From: Saccoglossus kowalevskii
Taxonomy: Eukaryota > Hemichordata > Enteropneusta > Harrimaniidae
Reading direction: 5' to 3'
NCBI RefSeq assembly: GCF_000003605.2
Contig: NW_003138320.1
Span: forward strand, 39,572-103,571
DNA: 64,000 nucleotides
Shown: piece by piece, positions 32,070 through 59,345 of the stretch
Numbering within the stretch: position 1 is the stretch's first letter
Layout of the letters: every line of letters starts with the position of its first letter
The notes under the pieces: generated by a model
What the model was told of the DNA's origin: nothing
Databases searched by the model: none
Seen by the model: only the letters and a program-made list of their open reading frames with translations
Made by a program: the position numbers and the translations under genes

Positions 32070-33392
32070 TCAAAATGCAAAATACACTGCGTTAGTGGCA
32101 GTAGCTTTCGAATCAGGAGTAATTTTAGTGACATCGTCCAACATTCCACCAAACATGACCAACTCTCCTCTGCCAACCACCAACGAATACAAACTAGTCT
32201 CTGGAGGAGGTCCATGCTGGTTTGTAACGGCTGTGGTGATTGGTTGATTATTAGATAACCTAACAGGACCTGCACTGCTTCCTGGGATTTGTTGATGCAA
32301 CGGAGAACCGGGTTGACTTGATCGGTTACTTCGGACAACCTGACAGTTTGACGAATCAGACGGCGACGAGAGAGGTGTCCTGACTGGTTGCCAAGCGATA
32401 TACCTATTGTTCGCAACATTTGAAATGTCCAGTACATACATTTGCATAGTATTTCTCGGCCATGCGTTGAATTTAGTCCCTGAATTTGTGCGAAAGTTTT
32501 TACGACAAGGTGAACCAAAGGTTTGGGTGCTTTGACGGTGGCCAGGACTCCCTGATCTGTGACTGGGAGAAGTATGTCCATTTTCAGGAATGCCACCAAC
32601 AGCACCATTCAACTGCAGCGACGGGGAGCTCCTACCAGAGTTAGATCGAGAATCAAATCTATCGTTATCTGGAAGTTCATTTCTAAACGAACAGGCACCA
32701 AGCGAATTTAAAGTGGCAGCAGCAGCGGCGGCAGCATCAGCAACAGTTAATGACCTTGTTGGTGAACCATTATTGCTATCTCGATCCTCATACCGACCTC
32801 TTGGTGGTCGGAGTACTGAATCGCTAAAACTTCTTGCAGTATTGTCCATTGCGTCACTTCTGGATCGCAAATGTCGAAGTTTAAAGATTCGTGTCCTGGC
32901 TGGCGATCCAAAAGACGATGACGAGCTGCTGGACACACATCTAGAGAAACTATTACTACTGCCAGATGCACTAGCTCCTTCCACAGGTGTGGAGCCAAGA
33001 CTACATCTCCGTGACAATGTACGTTGTGGTGAAAAGTCTCGACTCTCAGAGTTAGCAACAGTTCTACTCGGCATTTCCCAATCTAATAGATTATTTTCTG
33101 GGTCTGAGAAAGTCCTAACAACAGGTCGGCGCCGGAGACTGCCATGTCTGGTATGTACTGGCGATTCACGTCCATCAGAAGGCATATTGACTCTCTGTGG
33201 AGAATGTTGTCTCCTAAAATCGTGATTTGCAGCATTGGCCCGTGGAGGGGAGGAATGATGTCTGTATGCATTAGCCCGTAGAACAAAATTATTGCCCGTA
33301 TGAGATCGCTGATGCTGTGGTTTTAGTGGAATGGTAGGGATGCTTGATCTGTTCTTCATACTTTTACTGAACACAACTACACGCTCACCAAT
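32070..33392 (-). CDS. FBXO42: FBXO42 last exon: Ser/Arg-rich linker and final kelch repeat
   Basis: Acceptor TTTCTATCAG then IGERVVVFSKSMKNRSS. A long low-complexity linker rich in Ser, Arg, Pro and Asn follows, with a run of seven Ala (DAAAAAAATLNSLG), then the conserved end NTMQMYVLDISNV, GPPPETSLYSLVVGRGELVM, FGGMLDDVTK and NAVYFAF, stop TGA at 32072-32070. 440 residues. The linker is poorly conserved in sequence but occupies the same place as in vertebrates and is typical of a disordered, phosphorylatable segment. Confidence 0.95.
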   Translation of the reverse strand: MGERVVVFSKSMKNRSSIPTIPLKPQHQRSHTGNNFVLRANAYRHHSSPPRANAANHDFRRQHSPQRVNMPSDGRESPVHTRHGSLRRRPVVRTFSDPENNLLDWEMPSRTVANSESRDFSPQRTLSRRCSLGSTPVEGASASGSSNSFSRCVSSSSSSSFGSPARTRIFKLRHLRSRSDAMDNTARSFSDSVLRPPRGRYEDRDSNNGSPTRSLTVADAAAAAAATLNSLGACSFRNELPDNDRFDSRSNSGRSSPSLQLNGAVGGIPENGHTSPSHRSGSPGHRQSTQTFGSPCRKNFRTNSGTKFNAWPRNTMQMYVLDISNVANNRYIAWQPVRTPLSSPSDSSNCQVVRSNRSSQPGSPLHQQIPGSSAGPVRLSNNQPITTAVTNQHGPPPETSLYSLVVGRGELVMFGGMLDDVTKITPDSKATATNAVYFAF

Positions 33393-36300
33393 CTGATAGA
33401 AAGACAAGAATAAATCAAGTACAGTTTGTGATGTGGTGTGATTTGATATACAGTGAAAATACTCTGTTAAACAAACAACTGCCCCATATACATGTATGTA
33501 TATATATATATTTCCCCTCAGACACGTGTAGCTCTTATTGATTACCCGGATTCTCATAACTTGAATTAACTATGCAATCCGCACTAGATGTCAAACTACA
33601 AATAACTGAGGGGAATACCAGAAATACTGAAAAACATCATTTACCGGGTACATAAAAAGTGACTTCCCATGAAAATGATATCAAATTTCCCTTTAAAAGT
33701 CTACATGGGAATAAGCACCCCAATATTATTTTCAAAGTTGGTATATGCAAGTAGTTGATGGTCAAAATGCAGCGGAATAATACCGTAAACAATAAGGCAG
33801 AGGTGTGAAAGGCTATGAATGTAAGGTCCAGTACAAAACCAGAAATTTCAAAACAGCAACATTGTCTTTTCTTTTTCACCACCTTTTTTCTTTAAAATGA
33901 CACTCCAAATATCTTGGTTGCATATGAAAAAGTCAAGCAAACGATACATTTCACACCATGATTTGAACTTGATGAATATTTTTTTAAAACAATAGTGTTG
34001 AAGAGACCTCAAGATGGATTGTAAATCAAGTTGTTGTAAAGTTATAGGGGCTTTTTTTCGTATAAAGACATTGAACAATTTGATGGGCCATACATACCTT
34101 ACACGCCGGGTGACACCATAGTTGTGGTGCAGCAAAGTCCTCATTAAGTATATCAACCTCCTGCCACATCCACGGCACAGTGTCCATTCGCAGTACCCAT
34201 GCATCATTAAACATCTACACAGAACAATCACAAAGAATTTGGTTAAGTATGGAGTTCAAATGCAATTTTTTTTTTTTATAAAATACTGTTAAAATATTCT
34301 TATTTCTTAGTAAGAGTGAAGTTAATCGGACCGTGCAGCTTTGTATGAGAATTTGACCTTATTCACTGCAGGTTCAGTTTCAACTGTAATTCTACAATAT
34401 TTGTGCTATTAATAGTGCATGTGCATATGTAAATGACAGGGACCAATATACATGAATCCATTTTAGTATACAGTTTGTTTTTGGGTTTCAACACATTGCC
34501 TAATGAAAGCATCCATGGACACCTGACAGTAAAGGAAAAAACATTGTCGGAGGATAATGTTTTAAGTGTGCCTCTATTGGGAATACAGTATAATCCCCCC
34601 CCCCCACCACCACCACCACCCCCACCACCACCACCACCACCACCACCACCACCACCACCACCACCCCCCCAGTAATGCAAATACTGTTAGTCTGATGTTT
34701 TAACCAAACAAGCAATCTGTTCTCATGAGATGTGAATTGTAAATTGTAATGCGATACTCCTTAGGCTGCTCAAAATAAAGTGTGAAAGATTATTTCTTTA
34801 CATTCTGTATAATCTAGCATGATTGTTATTATGATTTCTGCAAACACATGACATTAGTGAATAGACAAGACAATTTAATAATATGTTTTTGGCATAAAAA
34901 GTGGCATAAACTTATTTGGCATTGGCACATTTCCCAAAATAAGCATTGTGCGCCCCCTAGTTGCGCGGTATTCTGTGTCATCGAGAAAATTCATACTGAG
35001 CCCTATTCTGAGTTCCAGCTTTTTAAAAATGTAAAATCATAGACGGCAACAAATAAACTCAAGTAATCGGTTGGCTATAATTAGGCACAATCGGCAGATG
35101 AAAACACCTAAATTGCTCGTTTCCAATGGAGTAACATAACATCGAGTCGGACATATATTTTGTGAGGTCATTATCTGGAATATGATTTGAGTGGTTGAAT
35201 AAGGTGATGCTAAGAGGATGACAAAATCAGGCCACTGCAAGATAAATGCAGTTACAAACTCACCATATTAGCTCCACCACAGCCACCAAGAATAAGAAGA
35301 CATCTGTCATTAACAACAACCTGCAAGAACAAATGGCACTGTTTAACACAAAATATTTACTAGATGTGTCTTTTCAGTGATTAACGACATTATTTCAAAC
35401 AAACTGGATTAATTTGTATTTGACATTGCCTACATTTGTTGATCAGTAGTTTCCTGTGGTATAATTGCAAATAGTTTAAGCAATTTTTTGTATTATCTTT
35501 GCTAACAGCAAGGTAGAATTTGTTTGGTTAGCACATATGTGTGCTGAATAAAGTTTTTCATGTACATAGTCCCTTACATAGCTTTTAATAAAAAAATTAT
35601 CATAGTGGAAACAAATAATTTTTAATCATTTGTGAAATTACATTGACCATTCTGCAGACAATGACTAGTATAAGCATTAAAGTTATTGTTGATTTACTGT
35701 CCATGGAGAGTCAAGAAATGGCTACAGTGCAGAAAGCAATGCTCTAGAAGTTCAAGAGAAAGAGTTCTATAGTCTGTATAGACTGCTCCTACATAGATAA
35801 ATAAATTACTCATATATCTGGCCTCTAGAGGGCACTGTTTATGTATTATTGATGGTGTCATAGGATCTATAGTTTTATGATCGACAGTAGAACACAGTCA
35901 CACATGGAAAGACACATGGTGGGTAGCTGTCATACAGGTCTCATGCCACTAATCAACCAATAACCGTTTGTATCCCTCAATTTAAATGCCTCGCAAAACC
36001 AATAAAATGTTTTAATATTTTTTTCTCAGGTGTGTCAAAGGTTTTTTGTGGTTGATTACTGACATGTTGAATTCCCATTTTTGAGCCTATGTTTTCAACT
36101 TTGTTTATCGTTTTCATATAGCAATCTTCTCATATGTTAACATTGACGTCTATTGAGTTTCATTTAGTGGTATGAGCCCTACATTAAATGAGGTCTAGAC
36201 TGGCCAAGCTTTGACAATTTTATATATATTTTTTATTAAATCGTGGTCTGATGTGAAATTACCATGACTGGTCAATCCTGCAGCATATTCATCGCTATTC

Positions 36301-39300
36301 AGAAAAAATACCAAACATTTTAATGCTTATAACATTTTTTAAATTTCGCTGATTTACTATTTCAGGCATATTCAGTAGGTTATAAATTCACGGTTTTATC
36401 ATTCAGATAATGTGTTCTATGCTGAATTTTACATATTCACTGATTTTTAATTTAGGGAATTTTCCAGCTAGCGAAATAAGCAAAATTAAAACCCAGTGAA
36501 TAATTAACCCTTTTACAGTACCATAAGAATATGTGAATATGTTCTCTGTCATAGCTCCCTAACTTACTGGTTATTCTATATGGAAGGTGACAAGAGTTAA
36601 TGGAATGAGTGCAAGCATGGAAGGTGCCTATTTCGTAGAAATAAAGGTGCTGAAAATAGCAAGTAATTGTTGACAGTGAGCGACACCATGACTTTTCTCA
36701 TGGTAAATTAGTTATAATTGGTACATGCACTGTAATGGCGCCTGGCTTGTCATTCATTAAAGTGATTCATTTATGAAAGTATGACTTAATTGGTCTTGTA
36801 CATGTACATGAGTTTTCTCTCTGTATCTGTGCTTCAGTCTGGTGTTGAAAACTAATTAGTTAAAGTTCAGTTGTTGGTTACTTTATGCCAGCTATGTATG
36901 TAGTACGTCTCGGAGAGTGCTTGCTTAGAAAAGTTTCAAGCAATCTGCTTCCATTTTGGGGCAGAGCATTCAATCTAGTGTTGAATACAAAGACTGAAAA
37001 TGAAACTGCGGACACCGAGATACAGATTTTGAATTCACCTTGTTTTGAATAGTTGTTTTTCATAGTTTTAGGTTCCATATTTCATACAGAATGAAAGCAA
37101 TGCCAGTATTCTCATGGCAGTGAAAATGTTAGTTTTCTATGTAAAACTGGGTAAAACTTTGAACGACTAAGGATTTACTTTGAAATCAAGGGTGGTTTAA
37201 CCTAACATTTTTGTTAAATACTATAGTAAAAAGTTCACCGGTCACTGATAGCATAGTGGTTGTCGCTTCAGACTCATGATCGGTAGACCCAAGTTCAAAT
37301 CCTACCTTAGGCTGAACATCAAAGGGTCAACCCCTACCCTGGGTGAGTGTACTACAGACTCAATGGGAAGGCCAATTCCACTGGCCGAGATTCATTCACT
37401 AATGAATGCGATTTTGGGGGAACCTTTGTTAAGGTCCTGGGTGCTTGTGTTCGACCGAGCCTGGTTGACGCCAGGATAGCGCATTAAAATTGCCATTTGA
37501 CAGAGAGATGGCCACACAGCCCTGTCATGTAGTCCTAAACATGAATATGACTTCTGTGGCAAAATGCACTATGTGTCAGCACTAGCACTTGCAATTTGCA
37601 CATACAAAAAGAAAAAAAAAGTCAGGAGAGGCAACGGTGACATTCAATGTCCAGAACTGTCGCCTGGCACAAAAATATTTATAAAAAAAAAATGATCACA
37701 TTCTGTCTTGGTCTAAATTTACATTGAAACTTCAAGTTCAAAATTAAATTTGTGACTGAATCACCCATTTAATAAATGAGGTCTCCCTCACAGTTATGAT
37801 CAAAGACATTACTATACCAAGCTTTATAATTAGCTGGATTTTAATTTTGTTTATTCCCCTGAAAGCTAAATGCGGTAACATTGATGACTCCAAACGAATA
37901 ATTAGAAACAATGCACACAAACTAGTATCACTCATGTAAGGGCAAAGGAAATATTTCAAGAGAGAGGGCATAGTAAACTTAAGCCTTTCACCCCAATTGT
38001 GTAGCTCCCTCACCTAATTATTAAATGGTTGAACCCTTATATTAATGGCACACACATAAAGCATACAAAAACTCCAACATGTGGTTCTCATACATCATGA
38101 ACAGTGGTGGCATGACCCGCCGTTATTTGGCAGTAAACTGTTCCTTGTACGTCATCAACATCACTAATGATAACACAGTATGTATATCTCTGACGATGAT
38201 TACTTTCTGAATAGGAAAATAAATACATCTATTACCGTACCTGTGAGTGTCCAAAACGAGGTCTTGGTCTGATGCCATCAATCTGGACTAATTCCCATAA
38301 CATGACTTGTATGTCTAATATCCAAACATCATTTGATCTGAAAAGAAAAGGGAAGGATAGAAAATTCTGTATTTAATCTTTTCATCCCCAGAATTTCTCA
38401 CCCAGATATTTCTGCACTTGTTTCTTATATTCTTCAATATTGCTGGAAATGTACTCAAATTTTGGAGCCAACAGACAAAATTTGAATAAATTTTCAGTTT
38501 TTACTCAAAAAATGTGGATATTTTTGACCCAATCTTTTTAAGGAAAGTGCAGTCTACATGTACGTGTATAAACGGGACTATTTTGTCAATTTGTAATAAA
38601 AAGAGGATCCCAGTGGTGAAAAGGTTAAGTCACATGTTACAAGTGTAGCACCTTCATGATTACCAGCTGAATACATACATGTACTTCTAACTAGTCAAGT
38701 GATTCCTTTTGTGATAGCTTTTACAGGTAAATTGGCCTCCGGATCAAATTTAGATTCATTGTCGAGCTCGAGTGACAGAAGAAATCTAATTAAATAATTG
38801 CATGAATCCAGATTTTTCAATGCCTAGTGCTAAATACTAGCGTGTTGCGTAGACGAAATATTGAAGAAACCAAAGTTTTCATGATTGACTTATAATGTTT
38901 ATTCTACTATTTGGGATTTTTGTTACACATGGATACCCAAGTAATCAGGTGATACATAGCATCATTATAATAGTACCCAATGTAATATCTAGTCACGTAT
39001 TAGTATTTTTATGTATGCGACATTACGTTAAAGAAGAATCAAATTCATACTACTGAATACATACCTAAGTGGTCAAATGGCCACTAAGCTAGCAGCAGTA
39101 ACCAGGAAATGAAATTATGATGTGTTACATGCTGCTGAATACAAGCCTAGGTGGTCAAATAGCCACCTAAGCTAGCAGCATTAACCATGAAATAACGTTA
39201 TGTGTTACATGCTACTGAATACATGCCTAGGTGGTCAAATGGCCACTTAAGCTAGCAGCAGTAACCAGGAAATGAAATTATGTGTTACATGCTACTGAAT

Positions 39301-40228
39301 ACATGCCTAGGTGGTCAAATAGCCACCTAAGCTAGCAGCATTAACCATGAAATAACGTTATGTGTTACATGCTACTGAATACAAGCCTAGGTGGTCAAAT
39401 AGCCACCTAAGCTAGCAGCATTAACCATGAAATAACGTTATGTGTTACATGCTACTGAATACATGCCTAGGTGGTCAAATGGCCACTTAAGCTAGCAGCA
39501 GTAACCAGGAAATGAAATTATGTGTTACATGCTACTGAATACATGCCTAGGTGGTCAAATGGCCACTTAAGCTAGCAGCAGTAACCAGGAAATGAAATTA
39601 TGCGTTACATGCTACTGAATACATGCCTAGGTGGTCAAATGGCCACCTGAGCTAGCAGCAGTAACCATGAAATAAAATTATGTGTTACATGCTACTGAAT
39701 ACATGCCTAGGTGGTCAAATGGCCACCTAAGCTAGCAGCAGTAACCAGGAAATGAAATTATGATGCGTTACATTCTGATGAATACATGCCTAGGTGGTCA
39801 AATGACTACCTAAGCTTGCAGCAGTAACTATGAAATGAAATTATGTGTTACATGCTACTAAATACATGCCTAGGTGGTCAAATGGCCACCTGAGCTAGCA
39901 GTAGTAACCAGGAAATGAAATTATGATGCGTTACATTCTGATGAATACATGCCTAGGTGGTCTTACCTCTGATGGCCACATAAGCCACCAAATATAATCA
40001 TCTTGTCTTCAACAACACTGGCTGCGTGACTGGCAACCGGTGGTGGAGTGGGAGTAGTGACGATAGCACACCATTTATTCTCACTTGGGATGTACATGTG
40101 AAGCTCATTGAAGAGTCTTGGAGCTTGGTGGAGAGGATATGGTACAGGAGGAGCCCAACCTCCAAATAACAGCAATGTGTCTTTGTAAGAGACCATACTG
40201 GCACAGGCTTTTGGAGACGGATACATAC
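32070..40228 (-). CDS. FBXO42: FBXO42, kelch repeats and C-terminus (5 exons, N-terminus not in view)
   Basis: Substrate-recognition subunit of an SCF-type E3 ubiquitin ligase; mammalian FBXO42 (JFK) has an F-box followed by kelch repeats and is reported to bind p53. Exons in transcript order: 40228-39967, 38337-38241, 35320-35264, 34214-34098, 33392-32070; phases join and give 617 residues. Kelch hallmarks LLLFGG, MIIFGG, LILGGCGG and VMFGG recur, with NDVWILDI, NDAWVL and MQMYVLDI as the partner strands. The order, LWCHPACK motif and GPPPETSL...GRGEL ending closely follow the vertebrate protein (about 717 residues). The N-terminal ~170 residues with the F-box are absent from what I can recognise. 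Orthology is firm; function is taken from the family. Confidence 0.95.
34098..34214 (-). CDS. FBXO42: FBXO42 exon, kelch strand NDAWVL and LWCHPACK
   Basis: MFNDAWVLRMDTVPWMWQEV, DILNEDFAAPQLWCHPACK between TGTGTAG and AAG|GTATGT, phase 0/0. Human: [20 protein letters not shown], then ELWCHPACR. The ATG here is internal, not a start. Confidence 0.96.
34583..34673. repeat. Poly-C and (CCA)n microsatellite
   Basis: A C-run, then (CCA)n with interruptions, then another C-run, in the FBXO42 intron between exons 35264-35320 and 34098-34214. It encodes poly-Pro or poly-Gly open frames by chance. The length is probably unstable between individuals. Confidence 0.95.
34904..35010. repeat. Dispersed repeat, copy 1
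   Basis: Shares GCACATTTCCCAAAATAAGC, ATTGTGCGCC and TCGAGAAAATTCATACTG with 60730-60866 in the same orientation. Identity is high over the core and falls off outside. Family unknown; probably a fragment of an interspersed element. Confidence 0.65.
35264..35320 (-). CDS. FBXO42: FBXO42 exon, kelch strand LLILGGCGG
   Basis: A 57-bp exon encoding VVVNDRCLLILGGCGGANM between TTCTTGCAG and ATG|GTGAGT, phase 0/0. Human: IVIDDATILILGGCGGPNA. Found by motif and splice sites. Confidence 0.95.
35321..38240 (-). other. FBXO42: FBXO42 intron with SINE
   Basis: A 2.9-kb intron. It holds the SINE at 37236-37621. The stretch 36340-36540 carries AATTTCGCTGATTT and similar words resembling the ends of the MITE family at 45489, but complete ends could not be fixed. 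No exon-like frame is seen. Confidence 0.6.
37236..37621 (+). mobile_element. tRNA-derived SINE
   Basis: A pol III A box TAGCATAGTGG (37249-37259) and B box GTTCAAATC (37293-37301) stand 33 bp apart in a tRNA-like 5' head, with CAT at the anticodon position. A unique body follows (including GGGTGAGTGTACTACAGACT and GACGCCAGGATAGCGCATTA) and a short A-rich tail at about 37605-37620. About 385 bp, + orientation, antisense to FBXO42. Whether the body carries a named conserved SINE domain could not be judged. Confidence 0.82.
38241..38337 (-). CDS. FBXO42: FBXO42 exon, kelch strand NDVWILDI
   Basis: Acceptor CTTTTCAG, donor CAG|GTACGG. Encodes SNDVWILDIQVMLWELVQID and GIRPRPRFGHSQ. Human counterpart: SNDVWVLDLEQWAWSKPNI...PRGGQSQ. 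It begins with the third base of a split Arg codon and ends in phase 0. Confidence 0.95.
38373..38628. mobile_element. TTAA-type MITE, family C
   Basis: Starts TTAATCTTTTCATCCCCAG and ends CAGTGGTGAAAAGGTTAA, inverse sequences, TTAA on both sides. 256 bp, about 60 bp longer than its copy at 61814. It ends upstream in the intron next to FBXO42 exon 38241-38337 (start only 35 bp away). Confidence 0.8.
39045..39962. repeat. 80-bp satellite array touching an FBXO42 splice donor
   Basis: About eleven and a half units of 80 bp. Each holds an imperfect palindrome (CCTAGGTGGTCAAATGGCCA then CCTAAG) plus AGCAGCAGTAACCAGGAAAT. Alternate units show CCACTTAA/CCACCTAA and CAGCAGTAACC/CAGCATTAACC variants. 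The right end runs without a gap into the donor of the FBXO42 exon at 39967. Confidence 0.95.
39967..40228 (-). CDS. FBXO42: FBXO42 exon with kelch repeats 2-3
   Basis: Acceptor CTTCTAG, donor CAGAG|GTAAGA. Encodes MYPSPKACASMVSYKDTLLL, FGGWAPPVPYPLHQAPRLFN, ELHMYIPSENKWCAIVTT and VVEDKMIIFGGLCGHQ. Human FBXO42 has [20 protein letters not shown] and PYPLHQPERFFDEIH. Phase 1 in, phase 2 out. The donor sits inside the last, modified unit of the 80-bp satellite. Confidence 0.96.
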
Positions 40229-42884
40229 CTAGAAGTAGAAAGAAAACAAATTGTCCAAAATTAGATTTGCATATTTTTCGATATACCATTTTCTGTCTTT
40301 CTTGAAATACCATGTTGTGCATAAAATAGAAAGTATGTATATACATGTACAGTTAAAAATTTGATTAAATAAAGGAAATAATCTCAGTGCCATGTTCCTC
40401 GTTGAGAAGATTTTTGTCGTTGAACGACAATCAAATTAATTCAAGTTCAATTTTCTTGTTTTAATGTCAGATGTTTGATCTGCACAATATTACATTTGCT
40501 TTGAGATAAATCTGACAGAAAATCAACGTTTACGTAAACATTTCTACGAAATGAAAAAGTCTTTTGTTAATAAATACAATGTATTTTTTGACCACAGAAT
40601 CATATAATTGTATGTACCATTATATTTTCTAAGCAAAATATTTAAAATCTAAGCGAAGACGTGAAGATTTATCTAGCTTCTCTGACACTAATTTGCCATT
40701 TTATTATAAATGGATAATTTCACTGAGAATGGTTTTCCACGCACGAGTTGTACAATTGAGATGGACAGGTGTAATTAGTTACAAGAGTAATATATTATTA
40801 TAAGCCGTGACAATAATGAAAGTCAAGAACTGATGTGCTGTGTATACTGCCCTCTATTGGTTAAACATCTAATAACTGATAAGACAGTCAGGTGTGACTA
40901 TATTATGTCTGTGTGTCTTACACTACACTGTAAACATTTCACTGGAAATTTAAATCTGTGAATGTGTAAAAAATTTTACAGGAATATCTGGTGGATATAC
41001 GCTTGATACTAAAATTACATACTAGTATGTAAATTAATGCCTTTACAGTAATGTCACTACTCGTATTCACAATAAATATTGAAATACTGTAAACATGTAT
41101 GCTCTATTAAATATGCATGTTAATAGAAGCACATAGAAACCCCAAATCACAGTTGTTGTAACCTGAATCGATATAAAATAATATTTATTTTGACCATAGA
41201 GACACCTCTGTAATTTACACAAGCCCACTGGCTACTAATAGAGCAAATACAGTAAGCCAAATATTATAGGTTACATAAACATATATGTATGTACATTGTA
41301 ACAGAAAGTTACCAATTCCCCTCCCCTACCAATAATTTTAGATAAACCATAGACGTAATTATTATAACCATGGAGATGATTAATACATTAATTCTTTATT
41401 CCAGAAGAGAACATAATATTGAAAAGACAGTGTGCATTATATCAATCCATAGTTATACAAGTATATCTTTTCTATAACAGTCTAATTAGCTGCATTTATG
41501 TTCATGAGAAAAAGAAAGGTCACTTTTTTACTTTCCATCCAAGTACTGCAACAATCAGTATACAGCAAAAATTTATAAAAAAAGTGAATCTTCAAGAAAC
41601 AGCAATGAATTTCAAATTTGAATTATTTTCATGGTGTCTGAAGCATTGTCAATTGTTTTTGTTCACAATCTGATTGTGTTTAATACTTACAGTTTCAATT
41701 GTGAATTCGTTTTAAATCACGTTCTGATGCCTGAAGATTTGTTTCAGTTCTAAATTTGGTTCTGCATTCAATGGTAATTCAAAACAAAGGCAAATTCTTA
41801 AATATTTTGTGCAATTTTTCCGAACACGTACCATCAAATACATGTACATGTATATTACATAATAGACCCCAATGCTCCAGGAACGGTACAAGTATTGCGC
41901 AACTTACATGTATATGTATGAAACAATGTAAAATGTAAATACCAGCCAAGTTTAAAATTCATATGAACACACCATTTTGTGCAATTTCATTACATACCAT
42001 TATACATTGTACCTGTATGTAAATGCACTTCTACACTATTAAGACTTGTAGGGTTTAAAAAAAAATTATCCCAACCAGATTGAAGCGACTACCGTACTAG
42101 CGATTACACAACACTATGTATAAAAGAACAGAAAAATTCTTTTCACACCTAATATATACAGCGAGTAGGGAACTAAACCGCGATTACGAGCATTCTGTAT
42201 TAAATAAAACCTGTCCTTTCAAATCTAGTCAATGCATTTAGTACAAAAAGATTAGTTTGTTACTCAGCTCAAAGGATGAGTTATCAGCATGAAAAACTGG
42301 GTTGAAATAAGTGAATAAATGTGAAAAAAAACTAATTATGGCTCCCATTCTACAGAGCACTGAAGGTGAAAAGAATAAATTTATAAGTGTTTCTTCAGAC
42401 ACAAGTTTTTTCCCATCAACTCACTCAAAACTCAATATAGATTAACAACCTGTATTAGATGCGAGACTGTCACCATCGTAATTTATTGTTTTGTACGCTC
42501 CAAGTACGTCAAGCAGCTCAGCAGGGACCTGAAGCTTGCTACAGGGAAGCTGATTGTTTTTAGAAGATAGATGTATATGATTTTTAATATGTCTCTTTAT
42601 CACAGTAATTATTAATGGCCAAAAATCTGGTAATGTTTCTGCTTCAAAAATGTAAAAGGTTATCATTTATGGTTTGTTTTTTTATGAGAGAAAATGTGTT
42701 GCTTATTTGTGTGAAGATATCATGTACAAGAGCACAGAGCACAGAGTTACACACCTCAATCTGAAGAGTCACATGACACGTAATTGTAATTGTAAATTTT
42801 AGGTGTAGTCAATACAAATACAAGATGTTATTGATCAGAGTGGCTCATAATCATCTATAGTCTATAAATTTCAAAATACAAGGC

Positions 42885-44290
42885 ATTGTAAGTTAGCAGA
42901 AAGCCTTTAAATCAGCTGAAAGTCATTGCAAGTTAGGAGAAAGCCTTGAAAATCAGCTGAACGTTATTGCAAGTTAGCTGAAAGCGATGAAAATCAGCTG
43001 AAAGCCACTGCAAGTTAGCAAAAAGCCTTGAAAATCAGCTGAAAGCCACTGTAAGTTAGCAAAAAGCCTTGAAAATCAGCTGAAAGTCATTGCAAGTTAG
43101 CAGAAAGCGATGAAAATCAGCTGAAAGCCACTGCAAGTAAGCTGAAAGCCTTGAAAATCAACTGAAAGCCACTGCAAGTTAGCAGAAAGCCTTGAAAATC
43201 AACTGAAATCCACTGCAAGTTAGCAGAAAGCCTTGAAAATCAACTGAAAGTCATTGCAAGTTAGCAGAAAGCCTTTAAATCAGCTGAAAGTCATTGCAAG
43301 TTAGGAGAAAGCCTTGAAAATCAGCTGAACGTTATTGCAAGTTAGCTGAAAGCGATGAAAATCAGCTGAAAGCCACTGCAAGTTAGCAAAAAGCCTTGAA
43401 AATCAGCTGAAAGCCACTGTAAGTTAGCAAAAAGCCTTGAAAATCAGCTGAAAGTCATTGCAAGTTAGCAGAAAGCGATGAAAATCAGCTGAAAGCCACT
43501 GCAAGTTAGCAGAAAGCCTTGAAAATCAGCTGAAAGTCATTGCAAGTTAGCAGAAAGCGATGAAAATCAGCTGAAAGTCGTTGCAAGTTAGCAGAAAGCC
43601 TTGAAAATCAGCTGAAAGCCACTGCAAGTTAGCAGAAAGCGATGAAAATCAGCTGAAAGCCACTGCAAGTTAGCAGAAAGCCTTGAAAATCAGCTGAAAG
43701 TCATTGCAAGTTAGGAGAAAGCCTTGAAAATCAGCTGAAAGCCACTGCAAGTTAGCAGAACGCCTTGAACATCAGCTGAAAGTCAATGCAAAGTTAGCTG
43801 AAAGCCTTGAAAATCAGCTGAAAGTCATTGCAAGTTAGCAGAAAGCCTTGAAAATCAGCTGAAAGCCACTGCAAGTTAACAGAAAGCCTTGAAAATCAGC
43901 TGAAAGTCATTGCAAAGTTAGCTGAAAGCCTTGAAAATCAGCTGAAAGTCATTGCAAGTTAGCAGAAAGTGATGAAAATCAGCTGAAAGTCATTGCAAGT
44001 TAGCAGAAATCCTTAAAAATCAGCTGAAAGTCATTGCAAGTTAGCAGAAATCCTTGAAAATCAGCTGAAAGTCATTGCAAGTTAGCAGAAATCCTTGAAA
44101 ATCAGCTGAAAGTTATTGCAAGTTATCTGAAAGCTTTGAAAATCATCTAAAAGTCATTGCAAGTTAGCTGAAAGTCTTGAAAATCAGCTGAAAGCAAATG
44201 CAAAGCTGAGAACCTTGAAATTCAACAGAAATCCACAGTAAAGTAGGCTTAAAGTATTGAAAGTCAGCTGAAAGCCACTGACATTCTTCA
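42885..44290. repeat. 41-bp satellite array with higher-order structure
   Basis: About 34 copies of a 41-bp unit, roughly CAGCTGAAAGTCATTGCAAG then TTAGCAGAAAGCCTTGAAAAT. Units at 42889 onward reappear in the same order, with the same variants (CCTTTAAAT, GAACGTTATT, AGCGATG), from about 43257, a shift of about 368 bp or nine units, so a block of at least six units was duplicated. Units decay toward the right end. Confidence 0.95.
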
Positions 44291-49286: not shown

Positions 49287-50573
49287 TAGCTCCGCTGTTA
49301 GAAATGCACATTTCAATTAAAAAACTGAAGACATCATCAGAAAATGAACAATATGTATAGTATCAAAGCAATCGGACTCAACAAGAAGTGGAAAATATCA
49401 CTTTCTACCAAAAATGACTAAAATATTCACCAAAATTAGAGAATTGAAGATATCATCACGAAATGAACAAATCTGAGAAAGGTCTACATGTAGTATCTAT
49501 ATATGTAATATCAAAGCAATTGAACTTTTGGTTTTTAACAAGAAGTCGAAAATATCACTTTTTACCAAATATGACAAAAATATTCACCAAAATTATAGAA
49601 TCCAAAATATCATCACGAAATGAACAAATCTGAGAAAGGTCTACATGTAGTATCTAAATATGTAATATCAAAGCAATTGAACTTTTGGTTTTTAACAAGA
49701 AGTTGAAAATATCACTTTTTACCAAAAATTACAAAAATATTCACGAAAATTAGAGAATTGAAGACATCATCACAAAATGAACAAATCTGAAAGAGGTCCA
49801 CATGTAGTACCTATATATGTAGTATCAAAGCAATTGGACTTGCGTTTTTTAACAAGAAGTCGAAAATATCACTTTTTACCAAAAATGACTAAAATATTCA
49901 CCAAAATTAGAGAATTGAAGATATCATCACGAAATGAACAAATCTGAGAGAGGTCCATATGTAGTACCTATATATGTAATATCAAAGCAATCGAACTTGC
50001 GGTTTTTAACAAGAAGTCGAAAATATCACTTTTTACCAAAAATGACAAAATATCACCAAAATTAGAGAATTAAAGATATCAACATGAAATGAACAAATCT
50101 GAGAAAGGTCTACATGTAGTATCTAAATATGTAATATCAAAGCAATTGAACTTTTGGTTTTTAACAAGAAGTCGAAAATATCACTTTTTACCAAAAATGA
50201 CAAAAATATTTACCAAAATTAGAGAATTAAAGATATCATTACAAAATGAACAAATCTGAGAGAGGTCCACATGTAGTACCTATATATGTAATATCAAAGC
50301 AATTGCACTTGCGGTTTTTAGCAAGAAGTCGAAAATATCACTTTTTACCAAAAATGACAAAAATATTCACCAAAATTAGAGAATTGAAGATATCAACATG
50401 AAATGAACAAACCTAAGAGAGGTCTACCCAAGGTACATATACACCAAGTATCAAAGCATTCAGGCTTGTAGTTTTCAAGAAGAAGTCGAAAAAGTAAAAC
50501 ATTGACACGGACGACGACGACGGACAATCACTCATATGATAAGCTCCGCTCGACAAAGTCGACAGCGGAGCTA
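49287..50573. mobile_element. Helentron-like non-autonomous element with internal 157-bp repeats
   Basis: Perfect 12-bp inverted ends, TAGCTCCGCTGT at 49287-49298 and ACAGCGGAGCTA at 50562-50573. The right end folds into a hairpin (AGCTCCGCT ... AGCGGAGCT, 50542-50572). Between them are about seven tandem units of 156-158 bp (GAAATGAACAAATCTGAGA, AACAAGAAGTCGAAAATATC) and a GACGACGACGACGG tract. Inverted ends, a tandem core and a 3' hairpin are the plan of Helentron-associated interspersed elements (HINEs); no protein is encoded. A tandem-repeat MITE is the alternative. Confidence 0.75.
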
Positions 50574-51534: not shown

Positions 51535-52200
51535 GAGAGAATGACAGAGTGGGAGAATGATTGACAGAGTGGGAGAATGATTGACAGAGTGGGAGAATGA
51601 TTGACAGAGTGAGAGAATGATTGACAGAGTGAGAGAATGGGTGAGTGAGAGAATGAGTGAGTGAGAGAATGATTGAGTGAGAGAATGATTGAGTGAGAGA
51701 ATGATTGAGTGAGAGAATGGGTGAGTGAGAGAATGGGTGAGTGAGAGAATGGGTGAGTGAGAGAATGGGTGAGTGAGAGAATGGGTGAGTGAGAGAATGG
51801 GTGAGTGAGAGAATGGGTGAGTGACAGAATGGGTGAGTGACAGAATGGGTGAGTGAGAGAATGGGTGAGTGAGAGAATGGGTGAGTGAGAGAATGGGTGA
51901 GTGAGAGAATGGGTGAGTGAGAGAATGGGTGAGTGAGAGAATGGGTGAGTGAGAGAATGAGTGAGAGAATGAGTAAGAGAATGGGTGAGTGAGAAAATGG
52001 GCGAGTAAGAGAATGGGTGAGTGAGAGAATGGGCGAGTGAGAGAATGGGCGAGTGAGAGAATGGGTGAGTGAGAGAATGGGTGAGTGAGAGAATGGGTGA
52101 GTGAGAGAATGGGTGAGTGAGAGATATTGGGTGAGTGAAAAAATGGCTGTGTGAGAGAATGGGCGAGTGAGAAAATGGCTGTGTGAGAGAATAAGTGACT
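51535..52200. repeat. 16-bp purine-rich minisatellite
   Basis: First about five units of 20 bp (GATTGACAGAGTGGGAGAAT), then some 35 units of 16 bp (GAGTGAGAGAATGGGT and variants GATT, GGGC). The + strand is nearly all purine plus T. The reverse strand gives long SHSPILSLT frames, an artefact of the array. Confidence 0.95.
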
Positions 52201-52916
52201 GAGTGACAGAGTAAGTGAACAATCAAACAAGGATACAAGCAGGTGATAAGGTAATGGTTGCACAATAAGTGGACAAGAAACAACAAAGGTACATTTATAT
52301 GAGATACATGTACACTTGTGTTAAATATCAATCACCAAGTAAAACTTTCATTACATGTGCATATTATACAACTTGACAATAAGTAAAAGTGCATGTACAA
52401 GTGAAGAGACATGCAAGAGTATGCCTGGAAGTGAGATATGAATCTGTACACAGTACAGTAAACCAAGCAGTCTACACATGTATCTAGAGAATGTATGATA
52501 AATGAATAGCAGCAATCAGGGTTTGTAATGATCTTGACAAGCTAACAGCAGGTGATACATAAATATCTACGTGCACAAAAAGAACAAATCTGTCCAGGAT
52601 ATATTAGGTTTGTTAAAACCATGCGTTAATTGGAGGGATTCCAAATGATGTGTCCATTCCTCAGTAGATAAATGAGGTACCATTGTAAAGTCTAAAGAAG
52701 AATTATTTCACGCTGGGCGGAATAATATACTGAAACCATTTATATGTTTTGAAGTCAAATGAGTTAAACATTAGAAAATTGATATTCAAAACAGATTATA
52801 TAAGCTTTCCAGTGCAGTCAATAGATATCACAGTACATGTACCATTTTTCTGTACATGACTACAAGTACCGGTATTTCGACTGGTACAATATTGTGAAAA
52901 ACAAGTACAGCTATTG

Positions 52917-53545
52917 TGGAAATCACATGTACTACACATGTATCATAGAAATCACATGTACAAGTTTGGAAATCACATGTACAACTTTGGAAATCACATG
53001 TAAGAGTTTGGAAATCACATGTACAAATTTGGAAATCACATACGAATTTGGAAATCACATGTACAAGTTTGGAAATCACATGTACGAATTTGGAATCACA
53101 TGTACGAATTTGGAAATCACATGTACAACTTTGGAAATCACATGTACAACTTTGGAAATCACATGTACAACTTTGGAAATCACATGGAAATCACATGTAC
53201 AAGTTTGGAAATCACATGTACAAATTTGGAAATCACATGTACAAATTTGGAAATCACAAGTACATGTTTGGAAATCACATGTACATGTTTGAGAATCACA
53301 TGTACATGTTTGGAAATCACATGTACATGTTTGGAAATCACATGTACGAATTTGGAAATCACATGTACATGTTTGAAAAACACATGTATGAATTTGGAAA
53401 TCACATGTACAAATTTGGAAATCACATGTACATGTTTGGAAATCACATGCACGAATTTGGAAATCACATGTACAAATTTGGAAATTACATGTACGAATTT
53501 GGAAATCACATGTGTATTACACTGTACATGTATCCTAGAAATCAC
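52917..53545. repeat. 21-bp minisatellite
   Basis: About 28 units of GGAAATCACATGTACAAGTTT with variation in the last bases (AAGTTT, AACTTT, GAATTT, ATGTTT). Each unit contains ACATGT or CATGTACATG palindromes. The 21-bp period leaves frames open on both strands, but there is no codon bias or start context. Confidence 0.95.
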
Positions 53546-58262: not shown

Positions 58263-58864
58263 CTTCCAGCATACATGTACATACATAAAGAGGTCAACAA
58301 ATAAGTCACTGGCCAAGATAGAATTCACTTACATATACGACTCTGTGCGAAACCTTGGAATACATGCATTAAAATGTCAAGATGGCCTTACTACAGTACT
58401 GACTTGTACACTGTGCATACAAATAGTTTTCAACTGGCAGTTTGCAAAAAAGACAGTCAGAAAAAGACAACAAAGTGCTGATACAAAAGTATTAGTGAAA
58501 AAATCATGATAGAGAGAAGACGTATCATTTGCAAAATTTCCAGGGCAGTACAAGCACAGTGTCAAAAACGTATTAAGTAGCAGTCCATCATTAAAAGTAG
58601 TTTTACTCAATTTCTATTCCCCAATGCCACCATATATCAATTAGATGAATAGACCCAATGGGAAGCCATTTCCACTCAATATTTGTTTCCATGTATACTA
58701 TGTATGTCCTTTATTTACACACAGCCTAGCAAAGACAGCTGACCAGATGCACAATTTTCTTTTCAGCAGATGTAATCTTAAATTCATGAAGACGTGAATA
58801 TCTTCACATTCAGTTTTACTACTTTCACTACACTGAAAAGATTAAATACAATTTTGACAGACGT

Positions 58865-59345
58865 GATGGATTTGGTGCCTATGGTACCCAGTTTATCTTC
58901 AATTGCAGCAATGAGTAGAGTTTGATACCCATTATATCCCAGTATATATTGTTACACTGTAACTACATGTATGATGGATTTGGTACCCATTGTACCCAGT
59001 TTAACTTCAAATGCAGCTATGAGTGGAGTTTGATACCCATTATATCCCAGTATATATTGTTACACTGTAACTACATGTATGATGGATTTGGTACCCCATT
59101 GTACCCAGTTTGTCTTCAATTGCAGCTATGAGTGGAGTTTGATACCCATTATATCCCAGTATATATTGTTACACTGTAACTACATGTATGATGGATTTGG
59201 TACCCATTGTACCCAGTTTGTCTTCAATTGCAGCTATGAGTGGAGTTTGATACCCATTATATCCCAGTATATATTGTTACACTGTAACTACATGTATGAT
59301 GGATTTGGTACCCATTGTACCCAGTTTAACTTCAAATGCAGCTAC
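58865..59345. repeat. ~109-bp tandem repeat, about 4.5 copies
   Basis: Units starting GATGGATTTGGTACCCATTG at 58973, 59081, 59190 and 59298 (108-109 bp apart), with a diverged copy before. Each contains TGATACCCATTATATCCCAG and ATTGTTACACTGTAACTACA, the latter partly palindromic (TTACACTGTAA). Confidence 0.93.

What the first reader, a model, noticed from the sequence alone, without database searches (positions are those of the whole stretch)
39045..40000. Satellite that seems to have grown out of an FBXO42 exon-intron junction
At the exon end the + strand reads GCCTAGGTGGTC, then TTACCTCTG (the donor region), then ATGGCCACATAAGC. Satellite units read GCCTAGGTGGTC, AA, ATGGCCACCTAAGC. So 12 bases on the intron side and 13 of 14 on the coding side match, and the units differ chiefly by lacking the 9 bases that hold the splice donor. 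The simplest reading is that the junction was duplicated, the copy lost its donor, and the donor-less copy was amplified to about 11 units of 80 bp. Each unit would thus carry a fossil of the codons for LCGH. Loss of the donor would avoid competing splice sites.
Basis: partly seen in the sequence, partly recalled or inferred. Interest (0 to 1): 0.75.

Follow-up and report, generated by a model that had tools for sequence, protein, structure and literature searches.

The report
Intron minisatellite abutting an exon edge
In an acorn worm, a short stretch repeated about eleven times inside an intron seems to have grown out of the edge of the neighbouring FBXO42 exon, much like the 'mirages' known from amphioxus; it probably has no function, but it would show how coding edges can seed repeats.

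Summary
The array is real: 39046-39962, 11 units of 80-83 bp plus 29 bp, beginning at intron base 5 beside FBXO42 exon A (minus strand) of the acorn worm Saccoglossus kowalevskii. In the 572-Mb assembly a DNA search and a 3-mismatch pattern search hit only this place, but for one pattern hit that fits chance. The exon end is old: its LCGHQR loop is identical in Glandiceps talaboti, another family. The coding-side match holds, but only 4 of 11 units reach 13/14 and none keeps the LCGH codons. Chance of a colinear match this good is 5e-6 to 1.5e-5 at one preset place. Allowing for search weakens that: another boundary-array pair reached 13/14 in 560 tests. Against descent, the unit is a palindrome whose exon-like arm also resembles its own inverted other arm. 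Best reading: a junction-derived minisatellite of the kind called 'mirage' in amphioxus, without the donor in its units; confidence 0.62. Main rival: an ordinary intronic minisatellite with a chance 14-base match.

The parts
39046..39962 (.). Minisatellite array of the form X(YEX)n: 29-bp head, then 11 units of 80-83 bp, ending GCCTAGGTGGTC
   Evidence: Tandem Repeats Finder; anchor spacings and unit alignment; matches in the 572-Mb assembly found only here apart from one 3-mismatch hit
39963..39971 (-). TTACCTCTG on the + strand: last five exon bases (CAGAG) and first four intron bases (GTAA); the 11 units have AA instead
39962..39966 (-). Authentic splice donor GTAAG of FBXO42 exon A; its fifth base is the last base of the array
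   Evidence: exon assembly and protein P0001; best of 62 GT sites scored
39972..39985 (-). Exon segment GC TTA TGT GGC CAT (LCGH) that resembles the unit's E arm, at best 13/14
   Evidence: protein loop identical in Glandiceps
39967..40228 (-). FBXO42 exon A (third coding exon of the protein model), Kelch region
38241..38337 (-). FBXO42 exon B, next exon downstream; completes R and begins SNDVW
35264..35320 (-). FBXO42 exon C
34098..34214 (-). FBXO42 exon D
32070..33392 (-). FBXO42 last exon (E) to the stop codon
39703..39735 (+). Palindromic core of one unit: GCCTAGGTGGTC AAAT GGCCACCTAAGC
   Evidence: DNA fold z -2.8 (+ strand) and -3.6 (- strand); arms aligned at every anchor

Best explanation
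The array is a minisatellite private to FBXO42 intron 3 of Saccoglossus kowalevskii, and it most likely arose by tandem duplication of a stretch that spanned the exon A/intron junction. The duplicate carried about 14 bases of exon end, lost the 9 bases with the donor, gained a filler stretch and a palindromic form, and was amplified and homogenised to 11 units by slippage or unequal exchange. It is most likely an inert by-product in the intron: the true donor remains the strongest site and splicing is expected to ignore the array. Shown here: the array, the lack of other copies in the searches made, the gene structure, the age of the exon loop at protein level. Inferred: descent of the unit from the junction, the order of steps, and lack of function.
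For: The array ends 4 bases from the exon; it abuts 1 of 7 FBXO42 exons, the other six lying 709 bp or more from any of the 20 arrays counted (period 20 or more, over 100 bp). The flank resumes the unit in order, strand and phase: 13/14, P about 5e-6 to 1.5e-5 at a preset place; 0 of 400 random flanks reach 13. Copies: 6 of 6 exact, 9 of 9 DNA and 11 of 12 three-mismatch pattern matches lie here; the twelfth fits the 0.5 to 2.8 expected by chance. Edges fading into degenerate units are common on this contig: 8 of 38 scorable array ends against 0.5% of random flanks at 12/14 or better, 4 of 38 if ends beside an overlapping TRF row are dropped. Exon loop older than the split of Harrimaniidae and Spengelidae. 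Precedent: amphioxus mirages. The authentic donor scores 10.2; of 61 other GT sites one scores 8.2 (39064), the rest 4.5 or less.
Against: Only 14 coding bases are shared, and only 4 of 11 units reach 13/14. Another boundary-array pair reached 13/14 among 560 tests; two other places in the window score 28 or more with gaps, as high as the exon; random 40-mers of the window reach the exon's score in 4 of 10,000. The unit's palindrome runs past the exon match, so the exon-like arm may be an inverted copy of the other arm. The authentic junction does not favour that hairpin (fold z -0.1 to -0.7). In the edge test, with the nearest unit as reference, this array's right edge scored only 11/14, which 4% of random flanks reach. 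The array's far end stops after the X part, which needs a filler step. No second species' DNA was read.
Confidence: 0.62

Rival explanations
1. Ordinary intronic minisatellite with a palindromic unit, born in the intron next to the donor; its exon-like arm is the inverted copy of its own other arm, and the 14-base likeness to the exon is chance.
For: The palindromic arms align, with gaps, past the 14 bases at which the exon match ends; unit folds reach z -4. Arrays are common here: 20 in 273 kb. 13/14 in any phase is not very rare (1 other of 560 tests).
Against: The match is in the right order, strand and phase and lies at the array's own end. In the 12-base core the unit consensus agrees with the exon at 11 and with the inverted other arm at 10, a difference too small to decide. 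Single-unit palindrome scores are modest: 16 to 30, where random centres reach 16 in 24% and 30 in 0.25%.
Confidence: 0.3
2. A mobile satellite or palindromic transposon that landed at the junction.
For: The unit is palindromic; nothing else.
Against: No other copy found in the 572-Mb assembly, with the caveat that the DNA search skips very common words and scores only the best candidates.
Confidence: 0.03
3. Array to exon: the exon end was overwritten or extended by array sequence and the splice donor moved.
For: The loop between GG and SNDVW differs between animal groups in length and letters.
Against: LCGHQR is identical in Glandiceps talaboti, so it predates the array unless the array is as old; units 85-100% alike suggest recent homogenisation, which does not by itself date the array.
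Confidence: 0.05

Closest known systems
Amphioxus 'mirages' (Adh3, globins BflGb6 and BflGb9, troponin C; PGBD5 repeats likened to them)
   Same: Minisatellite-like tandem duplications at exon-intron boundaries, unit lengths of 10 to 160 bp, unit identity of 81-100% in BflGb6, no apparent harm to regular splicing (passages of PMC3087553, and PMC3902484).
   Different: Units there include exon and intron parts, and many keep AG/GT; here the exon part is 14 bases, the donor is missing from all 11 units, and the host is a hemichordate.
Ordinary intronic minisatellites
   Same: Period, high identity between units, degenerate edges as in other arrays of the contig.
   Different: The array abuts an exon and its unit resembles the exon edge.
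Variable internal tandem repeats in human genes of segmental duplications (PMC2812944, passages)
   Same: Some of those repeats occur at exon-intron boundaries.
   Different: Those are reported to modify coding sequences or to give novel introns; here the coding sequence agrees with that of Glandiceps and nothing indicates a new intron.

Membership tests
Mirage (boundary-spanning minisatellite) | Tandem array at an exon-intron boundary | tested here: met
   Array begins at intron base 5
Mirage (boundary-spanning minisatellite) | Unit contains the exon side of the boundary | tested here: inconclusive
   14 bases, 13/14 in 4 of 11 units; significant at a preset place, weaker after allowing for searching
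Mirage (boundary-spanning minisatellite) | Unit contains the intron side of the boundary | tested here: met
   GCCTAGGTGGTC beside the donor is exact in 10 of the other 11 copies; this follows from the array abutting the exon
Mirage (boundary-spanning minisatellite) | Splice signal duplicated in units (many, not all, in amphioxus) | tested here: not met
   GTAA absent at the corresponding place in 11 of 11 units; according to PMC3087553 not every unit has it
Mirage (boundary-spanning minisatellite) | Regular splicing is undisturbed | not testable with these tools
   Only a database protein whose sequence fits use of the true donor; no RNA data
Mobile or dispersed satellite | Copies elsewhere in the genome | tested here: not met
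   the one outside hit has 3 mismatches and fits chance

The most novel reading that the evidence does not exclude
Boundary-seeded minisatellites (mirages) are not a peculiarity of lancelets but also arise in hemichordates, and a donor-less version can be amplified beside an exon, leaving a worn copy of coding sequence repeated through the intron.
Probability: 0.5. Interest if true: 0.5.

Novelty: new member of a known kind. Interest (0 to 1): 0.35.

Why it matters
If the descent is real, it extends a repeat process described in amphioxus, and proposed there as a source of new introns, to hemichordates, and it would be a case in which the duplicated boundary lacks its donor in every unit. If not, it is an ordinary minisatellite lying beside an exon.

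Tried and rejected
Hairpin that hides the donor, or loop deletion as the cause of donor loss: the 9 lost bases would lie in the loop of a hairpin between the intron arm and the exon end, but the junction does not favour that fold as RNA or DNA. The alignment of the junction's own two sides scores 18, within the units' range of 16-30, yet random centres reach 18 in 11% and random 40-mers against the exon flank in 5%. So I do not claim it.

Mobile satellite: disfavoured by the genome searches.

Array to exon transfer: disfavoured by the Glandiceps protein.

Likeness of the exon's other edge (acceptor, 40228) to the unit, 12/14: not beyond chance (8 of 560 tests reach 12 or more, this one included).

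Base rate of arrays abutting exons elsewhere: a kinase family search listed 143 matches, but its loci were not cut out; I did not go on, because a few dozen exons could not measure a rate that I estimate at about one in a thousand per boundary.

Literature searches, seen as listings with abstract starts: 28 papers, 10 listed; 1; 29, 12 listed; 34, 12 listed; 8; 3. None of the titles or abstract starts listed names a hemichordate case. The original amphioxus Adh paper is not held; I know it only through the citing papers.

Full report
What it is. The window lies in a 572-Mb animal assembly, contig C2949:39572-103571. The gene on the minus strand is FBXO42: exon A matches the Protein Data Bank chain called F-box only protein 42, and over the 200 residues compared the protein is identical to a Saccoglossus kowalevskii protein, P0001, and 83% identical to one of Glandiceps talaboti, P0002. 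The species name rests on that match. Five exons lie in the window (40228-39967, 38337-38241, 35320-35264, 34214-34098, 33392 to the stop at 32070); two more coding exons lie upstream on the same contig.

The array. Tandem Repeats Finder reports 39046-39962, period 80, 11.4 copies. Twelve anchors give 11 spacings of 80-83 bp, and units are 85-100% identical to one another, gaps aside. It starts and ends with forms of the same 29-bp part, so its form is X(YEX)n. In the gene's direction it begins at intron base 5: of the donor GTAAG the GTAA is unique and the last G is already array.

The claimed match. The 12 intron-side bases are exact at 11 of 12 anchors; that follows from the array abutting the exon and says nothing about the exon. 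The 14 coding-side bases match the units at 13 (4 units), 12 (5), 11 (1) and 9 (1). In the exon's frame 0 of 11 units read LCGH. Outside the array only this 14-mer of the window reaches 13/14 in unit phase 0-5; 6 other windows, at 4 places, reach 13/14 in another phase or strand. The analytic chance for a preset place is 5e-6 to 1.5e-5. Weaker views: local alignment of 40-base pieces against the first 40 bases of the unit gives P 4e-4 over the window (19,681 random pieces), and 0 of 3228 pieces of FBXO42 exons reach the score; two other places in the window score 28 or more with gaps; and among 560 tests of 14 exon edges against 20 arrays on both strands one other pair reaches 13.

Background of the genome. 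In 273 kb of this contig 20 arrays of period 20 or more and over 100 bp were kept; TRF rows cover 5.8%. At array ends the next bases often resume the unit: 8 of 38 scorable ends (2 of 40 lie beside runs of N) reach 12/14 and 6 reach 13/14, against 0.5% and 0 of 400 random flanks. Four of those 8 ends lie beside another overlapping TRF row, so they may be artefacts of where the boundary was set; 4 remain. In this test the focal right end reached only 11, a score that 4% of random flanks reach, because its reference is the nearest unit, which has changes of its own.

Direction. The loop GGLCGHQRSNDVW is shared by the two acorn worms, 2 of the 69 proteins (of 93) in which my pattern found the loop; others read SLGSRQM, SHVPGVG, LHKQRSVGHYTS and so on. 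The two worms belong to the families Harrimaniidae and Spengelidae. So the exon loop is old at protein level, and the array is likelier to be its descendant than its source. In the assembly 9 of 9 DNA matches, 6 of 6 exact pattern matches and 11 of 12 three-mismatch matches are here; the last one lies on contig C4080, and 0.5 to 2.8 such are expected by chance. The DNA search skips very common words and scores only the best candidates, so this is strong but not absolute.

The palindrome. Each unit holds an imperfect palindrome, core GCCTAGGTGGTC AAAT GGCCACCTAAGC, whose arms align with gaps over 25 to 42 columns at the 11 unit anchors. RNA folds of four pieces gave z -4.0, -2.3, -4.1 and -1.0; DNA folds of one unit gave -2.8, -1.9 and -3.6. 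Scores of single palindromes are modest (16-30; random centres reach 16 in 24% and 30 in 0.25%). The exon-like arm therefore has two candidate parents: the exon (core 11/12) and the inverted other arm (core 10/12, continuing past the core). The authentic junction does not favour the hairpin. This is the chief weakness of the junction model.

Splicing. With a simple donor matrix (recalled values) the true donor scores 10.2; the best array site, TAG|GTATGT at 39064, scores 8.2 and the others 4.5 or less, of 62 GT sites. The database protein fits use of the true donor. No RNA evidence was available.

Compared with what is known. Amphioxus genes carry 'mirages', minisatellite-like tandem duplications of exon-intron boundaries, which do not seem to disturb regular splicing (passages of PMC3087553, and PMC3902484). 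The present array is the same kind of thing if the 14-base homology is accepted. My literature searches listed no hemichordate case in their titles or abstract starts; long listings were cut.

Verdict. Observation partly confirmed, interpretation partly supported; new member of a known kind, confidence about 0.62; moderate interest.

Noticed in passing
window 42880-44194, 49380-50492, 51542-52218, 52948-53513, 58864-59344: Several further long minisatellites in the FBXO42 intron upstream of exon A; 20 arrays (period 20 or more, over 100 bp) in 273 kb of the contig.
   Followed up: partly
window 40215-40235: The acceptor edge of the same exon (CTAG|GTATGTATCC) resembles the unit's CTAGGCATGTATTC, 12/14; not beyond chance.
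   Followed up: partly
window 39064: The outermost, diverged copy holds a fair donor-like site TAG|GTATGT, a possible cryptic donor.
   Followed up: no
window 39967-39990 and 38325-38337 (protein loop after GG): The Kelch loop between GG and SNDVW, interrupted here by the intron, varies in length and sequence between animal groups.
   Followed up: partly
window 34604-34665: A (CCA)n run, 96% matches, in the intron between FBXO42 exons C and D.
   Followed up: no
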